A DNA stretch of 64,000 nucleotides, from assembly GCF_900109195.1 (NCBI RefSeq), contig NZ_FNZG01000001.1, forward strand, positions 1,178,001-1,242,000, written 5' to 3'. This document shows, piece by piece, positions 26,111 through 32,457 of the stretch (position 1 is its first letter; every line of letters begins with the position of its first letter). Source of the DNA: Pseudooceanicola nitratireducens (GTDB taxonomy: Bacteria; Pseudomonadota; Alphaproteobacteria; Rhodobacterales; Rhodobacteraceae). Below the pieces are notes generated by a model that worked only from the letters and a program-made list of their open reading frames with translations, made no database searches and was not told where the DNA came from. Position numbers and translations under genes: made by a program.

Positions 26111-28464
<2,354 letters not shown>

Positions 28465-28465
<1 letters not shown>

Positions 28466-30549
28466 TGGCTGAGCGGCCGGAAATCCTGTTTCCCCTGTTC
28501 GGGCAGGTCCAGACCCTGCCGGGGATCGGCCCGAAATCCGCGAAAAGCCTTGAGAACATGGGCGTTTTTGCGCCCCGGGATTTGCTGTTCGTCCTGCCGC
28601 ACGGTGCGATCGACCGTCGGCTTAGGCCCTCGATCCGCGGGGCCGAGATCCCAGGCGTGGTCACGGTTGAGATCGCGGTTGGCGCGCATCGTCCGGCGGC
28701 CCGTCGCGGCGGTGCCTACCGGATCATGGTCGAGGACGCAGAGGAGAGTTTCGCGCTCGTCTTCTTTCATGCCCGCGGGGATTACCTGAAAAAGCTGTTG
28801 CCGGAGGGAAGCAGACGGATCGTTTCGGGCCGGTTGGAGCTGTTTGACGGTGTTGCGCAGATGGTGCATCCGGATCACGTCTTGCCGGTCGCGGAAGCCC
28901 GGGACCTGCCGGAATTCGAACCGATTTATCCATTGACGCAAGGGGTTAGCCAAAAGGCTATGGGGAAGGCGGCGCAGGCGGCACTGTCGCGCGCGCCGGA
29001 GGTTTCGGAATGGATCGATGCAGAGCTTGTATCGCAGCGGGCCTGGCCAACCTGGCGGGACGCCCTGAATCAGGCGCATGCACCAAATGACGACACGAGC
29101 GTTCTGGATAGGGCGCGGGCTCGCCTGGCCTATGATGAGCTGTTTGCGCACCAGGTGACGCTGGCCCTGGCGCGGGCGCAGTCGCGGCGCAAGAAGGGGC
29201 AGGCCACGGTTGGTCCCGGGCACCTTCGGGACAAGGTTCTGAAATCTTTGCCTTATGCCCCGACCGGCGCGCAGCAACGCGCGATCCAGGAGATCGCCAA
29301 GGACATGGGCGGTGACACGCGGATGTCGCGGTTGCTGCAGGGGGACGTGGGCGCGGGCAAGACGCTGGTCGCGGTCATGGCGCTGCTGATCGCGGTCGAG
29401 GCCGGAGGGCAGGGTGTCATGATGACCCCGACGGAAATCCTTGCGCGCCAACACCTTGAAAGCGTGCAGCCCCTGGCCGAAGCCGCCGGCGTGCGGGTCG
29501 AGATCCTGACGGGCCGTGACCGGGGCGCGGACCGGGCGGAAAAGCTGCGGGCGCTTCAGGCTGGGGACATCGACATCCTGCTGGGCACCCACGCCGTCTT
29601 TCAGGACGATGTGATTTTCCGCGACCTGCGGCTGGCCATCGTCGACGAACAGCATCGGTTTGGGGTGCGCCAACGGCTGCTGTTGGGCAAGAAGGGCGCG
29701 CAGGCGGATGTCCTGGTGATGACTGCGACGCCCATCCCACGGTCTCTTGCGCTGACGCAATACGGGGACATGGATGTCTCCGTCCTCGATGAAAAGCCGC
29801 CGGGGCGGAAGCCGATCAAGACGGCCCTCATTTCGACCGACCGGCTGGAAGAGGTGGTGAACCACCTGCGGCCCGCCGTTGCCGAAGGCAAACAGGCCTA
29901 TTGGGTCTGCCCCCTGGTCGAGGAAAGCGAAACGGTCGATCTGACGGCGGCCGAGGACAGGTTCAAACACCTGCGCGCAGCACTTGGCGAAGACGTCGTG
30001 GCGCTGGTCCATGGCCAGATGCCCGCCGCGGACAAGGACGCGGCGATGGCCAAGTTCGTTGCCGGTGATCGCCAGGTTCTGGTTGCCACGACAGTGATCG
30101 AGGTCGGGGTCAACGTGCCCAATGCCTCGATCATGGTGATCGAACGGGCCGAGACCTTCGGCCTTGCGCAATTGCACCAGCTGCGCGGCCGCGTCGGCCG
30201 GGGGGAGGCCGAGGCCACCTGCCTGCTGATGTATCGCGCGCCCATGTCAGAAACGGCTGAAAAGCGGCTGATCCTGATGCGCGAAACCGAAGACGGCTTT
30301 CGAATCGCGGAAACCGATCTTGAGATGCGTGGTGCGGGCGACATGATCGGCACGGCGCAATCCGGTCTGCCCCGTTTCCGGATCGCCGATCTGGAAAGGG
30401 ATGCGGGGCTGATGGCCCTGGCCCAAAGTGATGCACGCACCCTTCTGACGCTGGATCCCAAGCTGGAAGGCGACAGGGGCCGGTCCGTGCGCGTTCTTCT
30501 GTGGCTGATGGGGCAGGATGAGGCAATTCGTTTGATTTCAGTCGGTTAG
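28465..30549 (+). CDS. recG: ATP-dependent DNA helicase RecG
   Basis: RecG is a branched-DNA translocase that regresses stalled forks. The 694-residue protein begins with a wedge/OB domain (LPGIGPKSAKSLENMGV). It then has Walker A GDVGAGKT, DEQHRFG for motif II, TATPIPRSLA for motif III and QLRGRVGRG for motif VI. The ATG at 28465 shares its A with the ligA stop TGA. It is followed by the 40-residue membrane protein gene behind SOS boxes. Confidence 0.95.
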
Positions 30550-30556
30550 GATTTTT

Positions 30557-30592
30557 GTTCTCAAATGTTCTCACAAAGTTCTTTACAGGTTC
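30557..30592 (+). promoter_or_regulatory. Tandem LexA-type (SOS) boxes
   Basis: Four GTTC half-sites begin at 30557, 30567, 30578 and 30589. The second with the third, and the third with the fourth, have exactly seven bases between (TCACAAA and TTTACAG), matching the alphaproteobacterial SOS box GTTC-N7-GTTC. The first pair is N6. GAAC motifs on the same strand follow at 30605 and 30625. The array lies between recG and the small gene at 30646. Confidence 0.75.
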
Positions 30593-30645
30593 TGAAGGAT
30601 ATGAGAACAAAGGAGCAACAAAGAGAACACTGACAGGAGCCCACG

Positions 30646-30768
30646 ATGATCCGCCAGATTTCAGACCTTGCCCGCCGGTCCCGCAGCACGCTGATCGAAG
30701 ACATGGCTGGTGTTGCTGCCTTGACCGTTCTTCTTCTTGGGGCGCTTCATCTGCCCGGCCTGATCTAA
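30646..30768 (+). CDS. 40-residue membrane protein behind SOS boxes
   Basis: The peptide starts MIRQISDLARRSRSTLIEDM and then forms one predicted membrane helix (about 21-40) ending HLPGLI. It is basic at the N-terminus, so the N-side is probably cytoplasmic. CAGGAG lies six bases before the ATG. It is too short for most gene callers. The SOS boxes 54 bases upstream suggest DNA-damage control. By size and topology it resembles the damage-induced inner-membrane division inhibitor SidA of Caulobacter (29 residues), or TisB-like peptides. No sequence relation is claimed. Confidence 0.7.
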   Translation: MIRQISDLARRSRSTLIEDMAGVAALTVLLLGALHLPGLI

Positions 30769-30921
30769 GGACCTGCCCCCGATTTCTGCTTTTCTGCCTG
30801 CATGATCACGTCCGGCCTGTCCCGCATTCCCCGATGCGGAAGCTGCGACTGCCTGTCCCCTTTCCGGGTTGCCTCATCCCCGGTTCGACAGGCCGGTGTC
30901 CCACGTGAGCATGCTGACCTG

Positions 30922-30961
30922 CCGCCGCCATTCCTTCCCCGGATGTGCGGCGGTTCTTTTT
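30922..30961 (+). terminator. Terminator downstream of the 40-residue gene
   Basis: CCGCCGC (30922-30928) pairs with GCGGCGG (30947-30953) around an 18-base loop and is followed by a T-rich run. The 150 bases between the small gene and this hairpin hold no credible ORF. Confidence 0.6.
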
Positions 30962-31002
30962 TTGGGAAAGACCGTTGAGCCTGGATCCAAAGGGGCGAGG
31001 CG

Positions 31003-32457
31003 TCAGAACGTATAAGCCAGGCGCAGCCCGCCCCAATGGCGACCCTGAACCTTGATCGGGGCAGAGGCGTCCTTCATCAGAACGAATGATCCGCCACCCA
31101 TGTCGCGGCGATAGACCTGCAATAGGAAGGGGGCGAGATTGCGCCCGGCCTTCAGCCCGACGCGGTCGTTGAAAATCCGCCTGTTCCGGCAATTGGCGGT
31201 GTTCCAGACCGGATCGGCCCCCTGCGGTTGAGAGAACTTCTTGTTGTGAGTCGGCAGATACCCGTTCCGATCGACGGCGGCGCAAAAGGCGATGCGATCA
31301 TCCATCTCAAGCACCGGTTCCTGGATCGCGGGCAGCACCTGGTCGGTGAAGCGGGTGAACCGGGTGGTGACCTGCTGCGGGTTGGAATTCGCGACTGGCC
31401 GATAGTCGGAATCAAACAGATCTTCCAATGAGATACGTCCATCCGCCACAGCCTTGGCGAAGATGTCAGAGATCTGCGCGGCCCGATCCCGCACCTCGGA
31501 AATCCAGCGCGCATCGCCGGTATTGCCACCCAGGGAAACGGAATCCTGCACCAGTTTTTCCGAGGTGTCGATCATCCGGGACACCCTTTGATGCGCCTCC
31601 TGCACGCCGGAAACGCCCTGTGTCACGGATCCATCCATCGCGGCGATATTGGGCAGGAAATCCCGCAAGGCCCCGTCCGCCTGACGGGCATCGCCTGTAA
31701 TCAGCTCGGTCCGCTTGTGCGAGGCGCGCATATCTTCGAGCGCGTTGGACAGGGCCGTGCGGCTAAGCGTGCCACTGTCGCGCATCTCTCCGGCCTGGCT
31801 GTTCACCTGGCCGGATTCCGTCTGTAGTTCGGAAATCCAGGCGATCAGAGCGTTGACGTTCGTGCTGATATCCTCGGCCGCCTTGCCGGTGCGGTGCGAC
31901 AGTTCGTTGATCGCATCGGCCACAACCGCAAAGCCCCGGCCGGTTTCCCCGGCGCGCGCGGCTTCGATCTTGGCATTGATCGCCAGCATGTTCACCTGCG
32001 CGGCGATATCGGCGATCTGGTTGTTCGAGGATTGCACCGCGTCCAGCGTGCCCTGCACCGATTGCGACCGGTCATCCAGGCTTTGGACCCAGGTGGTGAT
32101 ATGGGCGGATTTCTCTTCGGTGTCCTGAAGCAGATCGTTGGCTTCGGTCAGCTTGTTCAGCGTGGCGGTGATGGTTTCCGACATGGCCGTCAGCGTTTCC
32201 ATGACCGAAGCGTTCATCTGAACCACATGCCCCGCGCCTTCGCGAAGGCTGCGCAGGGTACGCAATTGTTCGTCGGTCTGTTCTTCCAGCTGATCCAGGA
32301 ACCCGGCCACGTCGACGATTTCGCCCCCGAGGGCCGAGGCGCTTTGCGCCACGCGGTTCAGCGTGTCGGCATCGGCCTGGCCAGAACCGGCCTGGCCTGA
32401 ACCAGCCTGTCCAGAGCCGGTCTGGCCCTGTCGGAACCCGCTTTGATCGTGGTGCAT
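31003..32457 (-). CDS. Soluble methyl-accepting chemotaxis protein with C-terminal sensor-like domain
   Basis: The 484-residue protein has no membrane segment. Residues about 30-300 are the coiled-coil signalling domain, with the receptor tip around [40 protein letters not shown] (positions about 150-190). The C-terminal part (about 350-484) has GRISLEDLFDSDYRPV and an arginine- and aspartate-rich stretch with FLLQVYRRDMGGG, resembling PAS-like sensors of cytoplasmic receptors. It should form an internal array signalling to CheA. N-terminal repeats of Gly-Ser-Gly-Gln-Ala precede the coil. Confidence 0.85.
   Translation of the reverse strand: MHHDQSGFRQGQTGSGQAGSGQAGSGQADADTLNRVAQSASALGGEIVDVAGFLDQLEEQTDEQLRTLRSLREGAGHVVQMNASVMETLTAMSETITATLNKLTEANDLLQDTEEKSAHITTWVQSLDDRSQSVQGTLDAVQSSNNQIADIAAQVNMLAINAKIEAARAGETGRGFAVVADAINELSHRTGKAAEDISTNVNALIAWISELQTESGQVNSQAGEMRDSGTLSRTALSNALEDMRASHKRTELITGDARQADGALRDFLPNIAAMDGSVTQGVSGVQEAHQRVSRMIDTSEKLVQDSVSLGGNTGDARWISEVRDRAAQISDIFAKAVADGRISLEDLFDSDYRPVANSNPQQVTTRFTRFTDQVLPAIQEPVLEMDDRIAFCAAVDRNGYLPTHNKKFSQPQGADPVWNTANCRNRRIFNDRVGLKAGRNLAPFLLQVYRRDMGGGSFVLMKDASAPIKVQGRHWGGLRLAYTF
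32374..32433. repeat. 15-bp tandem repeat inside the chemoreceptor gene
   Basis: Three clear copies plus a diverged one encode Gly-Ser-Gly-Gln-Ala pentads at residues 14-28 of the soluble chemoreceptor. The copy number is a likely site of length variation. Confidence 0.7.

What the first reader, a model, noticed from the sequence alone, without database searches (positions are those of the whole stretch)
30557..30768. Tandem SOS boxes drive a 40-residue membrane protein right after recG
Four GTTC half-sites at 30557, 30567, 30578 and 30589, two adjacent pairs with exact N7 spacing, sit between recG and a 40-residue gene with a ribosome site and one membrane helix. This is the alphaproteobacterial LexA-box form, and array placement suggests tight repression with strong induction. 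By size and topology the peptide is like SidA, the SOS-induced inner-membrane division inhibitor of Caulobacter, or like TisB-type toxins, but no sequence relation was seen. It may be an undescribed SOS effector of the Rhodobacterales.
Basis: partly seen in the sequence, partly recalled or inferred. Interest (0 to 1): 0.78.

Follow-up and report, generated by a model that had tools for sequence, protein, structure and literature searches.

The report
SOS membrane peptide with RNA tail
After the recG gene, one large family of bacteria carries what looks like a DNA-damage-controlled gene for a tiny membrane protein whose message ends in a folded RNA that matches no listed RNA family; what either part does is not yet tested.

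Summary
The 40-residue ORF after recG (window 30646-30768) is a real gene of a conserved family seen only in the window's bacterial family (Rhodobacteraceae, broad sense, judged by record names). A profile finds it in 344 of 395 family genomes. GTTC-N7-GTTC lies within 200 nt upstream in 94 of 94 peptide-selected loci. recA and lexA of the same genome share the downstream box, so LexA control is very likely. All 28 modelled pairs show compensatory changes; no shuffle of 500 reached the covariation score. Rfam has no match. Most likely: damage inactivates LexA, the peptide binds an inner-membrane partner, probably the divisome, and the RNA acts through pyrimidine-rich loops. Both functions are inferred.

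The parts
28441..30549 (+). recG, the conserved upstream neighbour (not part of the unit)
   Evidence: NCBIfam NF008164 1089.7 bits; recG precedes the unit in 93 of 94 peptide-selected loci and 118 of 119 promoter-selected loci
30557..30560 (+). extra upstream LexA half-site GTTC, N6 from the next
   Evidence: GTTCN6GTTCN7GTTC in 85 of 94 loci
30567..30581 (+). conserved LexA box GTTCTCACAAAGTTC, ending next to a -35-like TTTACA
   Evidence: GTTCN7GTTC within 200 nt upstream in 94 of 94 loci; coordinates
30578..30592 (+). second, overlapping N7 box GTTCTTTACAGGTTC; its 3' half-site is not in the family consensus
30582..30587 (+). -35-like TTTACA (TTGACA in diverged loci L232, L236, L240; TTGACG in L235)
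   Evidence: sequence; conserved TTTAC. The tool's sigma-70 consensus scan found no promoter here; start site not mapped
30605..30619 (-). reverse-oriented LexA-like box, GTTGCTCCTTTGTTC on the - strand, over the presumed -10/start region; 38 bp after the first box as in most relatives
   Evidence: GAACN7[CG]AAC in 91 of 94, whole fixed-spacing composite in 83 of 94; similar sequence context at recA and lexA
30646..30768 (+). 40-residue bitopic inner-membrane peptide (N-terminus in, predicted)
   Evidence: 344 of 395 family genomes; mean pN 0.17 < pS 0.49 over 127 pairs; a 17-residue hydrophobic stretch in 190 of 190 peptides of 36 aa or more
30794..30921 (+). multibranched structured RNA (long closing helix P1 and hairpins P2, P3, P4)
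   Evidence: cmsearch R1 40.6 bits, E 8e-7, window not among the seeds; covariation; fold z -4.76
30921..30963 (+). terminator-like hairpin and T-run GCCGCCGCCATTC...GGATGTGCGGCGGTTCTTTTTTT
   Evidence: helix coordinates; my terminator pattern in 145 of 201 downstream regions; the tool's stricter terminator scan found none here

Best explanation
One LexA-repressed transcription unit sits behind recG. LexA covers the -35 side (GTTC-N7-GTTC plus an extra half-site) and the -10/start side (reverse box), which should keep it tightly off. DNA damage leads to RecA-stimulated LexA cleavage and a transcript of about 340 nt that ends near 30963. Its 5' part is translated into a 40-residue peptide: a positively charged amphipathic N-terminal helix lying on the inner face and one transmembrane helix with a conserved face (T15, D19, G22, L26, L30, L34, P37). 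I propose that this face docks on a transmembrane partner, most likely the FtsW/FtsI/FtsN complex, and delays division until repair is done, as SidA does. The 3' part is a conserved branched RNA that shows strongly conserved pyrimidine-rich loops (CUGCC, CUGUCCC, UGCCUGUC, UGCCUC) on covarying stems; I propose that it acts, as the mRNA tail or after processing, as an SOS-induced base-pairing sRNA on ribosome-binding sites. Shown by sequence: unit, boxes, coding, topology signals, RNA fold, linkage. Inferred: LexA binding and induction, a single transcript, partner, division arrest, RNA targets.
For: Boxes and peptide together: 94 of 94 peptide-selected upstream regions. RNA-selected sample: 20 of 20 fetched places with peptide, box and recG. 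recA and lexA of the same genome carry a similar -10/start composite. Coding: pN<pS in 124 of 127 pairs, third-position excess. Topology: K/R before the membrane segment, none after. Conserved helical face: moment 8.91 against shuffled mean 3.56, 14 of 5000 shuffles as high, best angle 100 degrees. RNA: 367 cells with a compensatory change and 90.8% of cells paired against 62.3% in shuffles on A8; 360 cells, 91.9% against 62.2% on A6; no shuffle of 500 reached these values. Precedents from passages: SidA binds FtsW, and the Caulobacter lexA mutant filaments because of sidA; EcpR1, a rhizobial stress sRNA with a conserved loop, causes cell elongation when overproduced.
Against: No expression, binding or phenotype data. 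The division target is by analogy only. 51 of 395 family genomes gave no profile match; of 20 examined, 4 have recG with no recognisable unit after it, 4 gave no recG match at the cut-off, and 12 hold a diverged (11) or doubtful (1) small ORF with boxes. RNA loops do not pair better with the peptide's own ribosome site than those of other species, and no conserved trans target was found. R2 missed 10 of 93 distinct peptide loci and 24 of 80 promoter loci (5 of the 24 hold under 170 nt after the stop or end before it). Helix P3 is the weakest (73.9-80.1% paired). A25 and L36 of the peptide are conserved but lie off the proposed face.
Confidence: 0.45

Rival explanations
1. The peptide is an SOS toxin of the TisB or DinQ kind that depolarises the membrane and causes dormancy.
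For: Small, probably LexA-controlled, single membrane helix; TisB (29 aa) and DinQ (27 aa) are SOS-controlled inner-membrane peptides (passages).
Against: No charged residue after position 19 in 129 of 130 peptides, and a membrane-segment moment below shuffled (0.052 against 0.097), unlike TisB's charged strip. SD-like motif close to the start in 92 of 94. One match per genome in 342 of the 344 matching genomes (G384 and G399 had two), no match in plasmids or phages. Loops do not favour the peptide's own ribosome site.
Confidence: 0.15
2. The peptide modulates another membrane process of the damage response (recombination at the membrane, nucleoid organisation, DNA uptake or gene transfer agent activity, a sensor kinase) and does not act on the divisome.
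For: The conserved helix face predicts a membrane partner but does not name it. In D. shibae in-silico LexA sites lie at recombination, pilus and GTA genes (passages of PMC6473078).
Against: No linked gene of such a process was seen, but neighbours other than recG were not surveyed; the unit persists where recG is not within 1.5 kb (L029).
Confidence: 0.25
3. The RNA has no target of its own: it is a stabilising 3' end or folding scaffold for the short mRNA, and the peptide is the only effector.
For: All 20 RNA places fetched lie behind the peptide, one match per genome in 63 matching genomes. No target was found.
Against: A terminator alone would stabilise an mRNA. The loops keep their sequence while the stems change by compensation, as for RNAs that contact something by their loops.
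Confidence: 0.25
4. The RNA is a cis antitoxin that masks the peptide's ribosome-binding site.
For: In the window GACAGG of the leader could pair with CCUGUC of P3; type I toxin mRNAs are controlled by RNA (passages).
Against: Tested over 157 loci: own -9.88, other species -10.09, shuffled leaders -10.21 kcal/mol; own stronger than other in 66 of 157.
Confidence: 0.05
5. The boxes serve a regulator other than LexA.
For: One N6 pair and an inverted box are not the plain GTTCN7GTTC; spacing is rigid.
Against: recA, lexA and uvrA of the genome carry the same half-sites, recA and lexA in a similar -10/start context.
Confidence: 0.04

Closest known systems
SidA of Caulobacter crescentus (29 aa, SOS-induced, inner membrane, interacts with FtsW; passages of PMC4211646)
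   Same: Alphaproteobacterial, LexA-type box, tiny single-helix membrane peptide encoded on the chromosome.
   Different: No SidA sequence was compared; this one is 40 aa, kept after recG, and followed by a conserved branched RNA. In a class sample of 290 genomes the 5 matches all lay in the window's family.
TisB/IstR-1 and DinQ/AgrB of E. coli (SOS type I toxins; passages of PMC8309996)
   Same: LexA control and tiny inner-membrane peptide, with RNA involved.
   Different: Non-amphipathic uncharged membrane segment; RNA lies downstream on the same strand and does not preferentially pair with the leader.
EcpR1 of Sinorhizobium meliloti (abstract and passages of PMC4414408)
   Same: Alphaproteobacterial stress-induced sRNA with a conserved C-rich loop; its overproduction causes cell elongation.
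   Different: EcpR1 has its own transcription unit after divK-pleD, two stem-loops, Rhizobiales; no relation tested.
Dual-function mRNA/sRNA transcripts such as SgrS/SgrT (recalled, from no call)
   Same: One transcript carrying a small ORF and an RNA domain.
   Different: Predicted LexA control, membrane peptide, branched RNA; RNA function unproven.

Membership tests
LexA (SOS) regulon | GTTCN7GTTC box in the promoter region | tested here: met
   94 of 94; same half-sites at recA, lexA, uvrA
LexA (SOS) regulon | LexA binding and RecA-dependent induction | not testable with these tools
   no expression or binding data
SidA-type SOS division inhibitor | tiny single-helix inner-membrane peptide | tested here: met
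   by hydrophobicity only: 190 of 190 peptides of 36 aa or more
SidA-type SOS division inhibitor | sequence relation to SidA | not tested
   no SidA sequence was in hand; class sample gave no hit outside the family
SidA-type SOS division inhibitor | arrest of division through FtsW/FtsN | not testable with these tools
   none
TisB-type SOS toxin | amphipathic membrane helix with charged strip | tested here: not met
   moment 0.052 against 0.097 shuffled; no charge after residue 19 in 129 of 130; TisB features
Type I toxin-antitoxin | RNA pairing with the toxin leader | tested here: inconclusive
   the downstream RNA shows no preference for the own leader; antisense RNAs elsewhere were not sought
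Any Rfam RNA family | covariance-model match | tested here: not met
   no match up to E 1 on window 30450-31020; relatives' RNAs were not scanned
Any Pfam or NCBIfam protein family | profile match of the peptide | tested here: not met
   0 families up to E 1 for the window peptide; PHROGs and PADLOC not searched

The most novel reading that the evidence does not exclude
A LexA-controlled bifunctional transcript is the lineage's own division checkpoint: a membrane peptide that stalls the divisome and, in the same molecule, a new class of branched RNA that reprograms translation of several mRNAs through repeated CUGCC/CUGUCCC loops, so that one SOS message acts at once on the membrane and on ribosome-binding sites.
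Probability: 0.25. Interest if true: 0.92.

Novelty: new variant of a known kind. Interest (0 to 1): 0.8.

Why it matters
SOS division inhibitors differ between lineages (passages), and I met none named for the Rhodobacteraceae in the ten paper searches listed. This unit is nearly universal there, small enough to delete or express in one step, and comes with a strongly covarying RNA that Rfam does not name. It makes two questions directly testable: how these bacteria stop dividing after DNA damage, and whether an SOS message can carry both a membrane effector and a regulatory RNA.

Tried and rejected
Cis-antitoxin reading of the RNA: not supported. TisB-like pore: not supported. Mobile or viral origin: no match of the window peptide in plasmids or phages, no promoter match in viral contigs. 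Target search with the loop complement: exact GGGACAGGCA gave 14 places in the own genome (reversed control 9), one being the RNA itself; in 3 of the other 13 the motif starts 9-16 nt before an ATG of a long ORF (L299, L300, L308), and L303 has an ATG 4 nt before it. GGGACAGG-N1-13-ATG exceeds its reversed control in the own genome (59 against 16) and in the 20 other rows, but the motif is itself Shine-Dalgarno-like, so this is not evidence of targets. The tool's promoter and terminator scans found nothing in 30450-31020: the -10 is not consensus, and the terminator stem has a bulge and a C in its T-run. A first sequence-only alignment of the RNA (A4, RNAalifold) gave 20 pairs, 8 with a change on both sides, and a weak covariation term (-0.42); a hand-given structure and model realignment were needed, which leans counts towards the structure, hence the slid and shuffled controls. 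The count 'pairs with a change on both sides' is itself weak: shuffles average 23.6 and 24.6 of 28, and 1 and 2 of 500 reach 28; the cell counts and scores carry the case. AlphaFold never ran. LexA occurrence across genomes was not used as a test. My readings for loci on the minus strand were wrong way round and were replaced.

Papers: searches were (listings with abstract starts). Passages only were seen of PMC6473078, PMC4211646, PMC12700426, PMC4809877, PMC2864571, PMC5107571, PMC8309996, PMC13384398; abstract and passages of PMC4414408. Supplements were not available. 'Not in print' means only: not met in these searches of an open-licence library.

Full report
1. What is there. The window lies in a 4.06 Mb genome. 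Its genus is most likely Pseudooceanicola: the contigs of L134 (P. batsensis) and L119 (Pseudooceanicola sp.) have the lengths of G002:C2 and G001:C59, two same-genus genomes. recG ends at 30549. GTTC half-sites start at 30557, 30567, 30578 and 30589. The spacings are N6, N7, N7, so the N7 boxes are 30567-30581 and 30578-30592 and overlap. A reverse box GAACAAAGGAGCAAC lies at 30605-30619. The ORF runs 30646-30768 (40 aa). No Pfam or NCBIfam family matches the window peptide up to E 1.

2. The peptide is a conserved gene. A BLAST-type search finds it in 45 of 100 genomes, own included, and a 27-sequence profile in 344 of 395 genomes of the family and 291 of 329 genera. In a class-wide sample of 290 genomes 5 had a match, all in the window's family. 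Peptides of 40 aa: over 127 pairs with 70-95% nucleotide identity mean pN is 0.17 and pS 0.49, pN<pS in 124, and differences by codon position are 1134/603/2142. Of the 51 family genomes without a profile match, 20 were listed and examined: 16 gave a recG match and 4 none at the cut-off (G051 gave two places, the weaker without unit). Of those 16, 11 carry a diverged small ORF with boxes (profile E up to 0.006, for a search of one short stretch each), one (L246) a doubtful ORF with a box, and 4 (L237, L239, L242, L243) nothing recognisable. The other 31 negatives were not examined.

3. The promoter. Peptide-selected loci (95 ids, 94 distinct upstreams; none chosen by promoter): GTTCN7GTTC within 200 nt in 94, reverse box GAACN7[CG]AAC in 91, third half-site 10 bp upstream in 85, the whole composite at fixed spacing in 83, recG upstream in 93. 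These loci are the best matches plus 40 taken down the listed part, which shows only the better matches, so they lean to well-conserved peptides. Consensus: tttGTTC.CaAATGTTCTcAaAAAGTTCTTTACa(N11)AtaTGAGAACAAAggggCAACAaa (77 loci with the forward box and GAAC at fixed spacing). All 119 have the same 53-bp length, although gaps of 14-18 were allowed (18 was the upper limit, so longer gaps would be missed). 118 follow recG and 117 show the peptide; four of these have weak profile scores (E 3e-6 to 0.015), and six are 31-aa short forms, at least three from Paracoccus records; the two others are cut off after 53 and 40 held bases. In the same genome recA has ATATGAGAACAAGAGGCGAACAAAG, lexA has GAACACGTATAGAAC plus GAACAAACGGCAAC, and uvrA has GTTCCCTGTTTGTTC. 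The reverse box therefore has the sequence context of those of recA and lexA, and the forward box ends beside a -35-like TTKACA. Steric repression by LexA at both promoter elements is the natural reading; binding is inferred, the start site is not mapped, and the tool's sigma-70 consensus scan found no promoter.

4. The peptide's likely shape. All 190 distinct peptides of 36 aa or more have a strongly hydrophobic 17-residue stretch (mean 2.35, lowest 1.75 on the Kyte-Doolittle scale); K/R lie before it (mean 2.7) and never after it, which predicts N-terminus in. In 130 peptides of 40 aa, residues 2-18 are amphipathic (moment 0.416, shuffled 0.258, higher in 126), the membrane part is not (0.052, shuffled 0.097), and no charged residue follows position 19 in 129. 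Conservation along residues 15-38 is periodic at 100 degrees (moment 8.91, shuffled 3.56; 14 of 5000 shuffles as high): one face carries T15, D19, G22, L26, L30, L34 and P37, while A25 and L36 are conserved off it. That is what a helix docking on a conserved membrane partner would show, and not what a TisB-like pore shows. AlphaFold could not be run.

5. In the first 200 nt after the stop codon CTGCCTG occurs in 154, CTGTCCC in 141, GCGGCGG in 135 and GTTTTTT in 127 of 194 loci; my terminator pattern is met in 145 of 201. Many of the folds that I printed show one plan: a long closing helix P1, hairpins P2, P3 and P4, then a terminator-like hairpin. In the window P1 is 30800-30821 with 30887-30914 (interrupted), P2 30822-30839, P3 30847-30857, P4 30864-30883, terminator-like stem 30921-30954 and T-run 30957-30963; the fold of 30769-30965 is -77.5 kcal/mol, z -4.76. 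The tool's terminator scan, with stricter rules, found none. Model R1 (15 seeds, window not among them) finds 68 of 95 sources, which is 51 of 78 distinct non-seed loci when the same DNA under two ids (window/L009, L012/L046) counts once, including window 30794-30921 at E 8e-7. It also finds 52 of 79 promoter-selected loci given (L130 left out; the 39 loci L145-L183 were not searched with the model) and 0 of 12 control loci. R2 (68 sequences, so most of the next set is its training) finds 83 of 93 distinct peptide-selected loci (84 of 94 sources; L019 left out), and 56 of 80 promoter-selected loci with 0 of 11 controls.

6. Covariation. On A6 (52 promoter-selected sequences, no seeds and none with the same DNA as a seed): all 28 pairs have a change on both sides that keeps the pair (shuffles 23.6 on average, 1 of 500 reached 28), 360 such cells (shuffles 96.4), 91.9% of cells paired against 62.2%, the last two reached by 0 of 500; slid controls 35.9-43.6%. 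On A8 (56): 28 pairs (shuffles 24.6, 2 of 500), 367 cells, 90.8% against 62.3%. On A5 (68, seeds included): 317 cells, 90.6% against 69.0%. These alignments were fitted to the structure, nine loci have the same DNA in both locus sets, and P3 is weakest (73.9-80.1%). The margin over all controls is still very large. Loops and 5' tail keep their sequence while stems change: CUGCC, UCCC of P2, UGCCUGUC of P3, UGCC of P4. Rfam has no match up to E 1 for the window stretch.

7. One unit. In whole genomes the RNA model matched 63 of 150 family genomes, once each (stricter filters, which lose weak matches), and 3 of 143 in a class sample, all in the family. Of those 63, 20 places, mostly ones whose peptide had not been listed before, were fetched: peptide 20, LexA-type box 20, recG 20. 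The unit also occurs without recG in the 1.5 kb upstream (L029) or with a 545-bp gap from recG to box (L065), so it is not simply a recG tail. Promoter, peptide and RNA thus travel together, presumably as one transcript of about 340 nt starting near the reverse box.

8. How it probably works. Background: LexA is inactivated after DNA damage, and lineages add their own SOS division inhibitor (passages). By analogy with SidA the peptide most likely holds the late divisome inactive; I give the whole proposed mechanism 0.45, LexA control alone about 0.95 and the RNA fold about 0.98. For the RNA a trans-acting sRNA is most likely, because loops stay fixed while stems vary and because stress-induced EcpR1 shows such a link in Rhizobiales. 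A cis role on the peptide's ribosome site is not supported: own -9.88, other species -10.09, shuffled leaders -10.21 kcal/mol over 157 loci. No trans target was established.

9. Novelty. SOS-induced membrane peptides are a known kind, and dual-function transcripts are a known idea (recalled). New here, as far as the searches reach, are this near-universal Rhodobacteraceae peptide family, its rigid double LexA-type promoter, and a branched RNA family behind it. I file it as a new variant of a known kind; if the RNA acts in trans from an SOS message it would be more than that.

Noticed in passing
L085, L124, L138, L150, L161, L176: Short forms of the peptide (31 aa; the first three from Paracoccus records) keep the membrane part but lack the amphipathic N-terminal helix. 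Of the four re-examined, the RNA model matches L085 weakly (E 0.019), L138 and L176 not significantly and L124 not at all.
   Followed up: partly
L246 downstream of recG: An AT-rich, 2.5-Mb family member has a GAACN7GAAC box and a small membrane-type ORF after recG with hardly any sequence likeness: position and box may outlast the peptide sequence.
   Followed up: no
GGGACAGG-N1-13-ATG in 21 genomes of the genus: The complement of the RNA's commonest loop motif is frequent just before ATG (59 against 16 reversed control in the own genome); it is also a plausible ribosome site, so the meaning is open.
   Followed up: partly
L029: The unit stands without recG in the 1.5 kb upstream, suggesting that it moves or survives independently of recG.
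   Followed up: no
L187, between P3 and P4: An extra hairpin (GGCGGATCTGCCATCCGCC) appears in the branched RNA of one genome, so the junction may tolerate added arms.
   Followed up: no
window 31003-32457, - strand: Convergent gene for a protein with an MCP signalling domain; not examined further.
   Followed up: no
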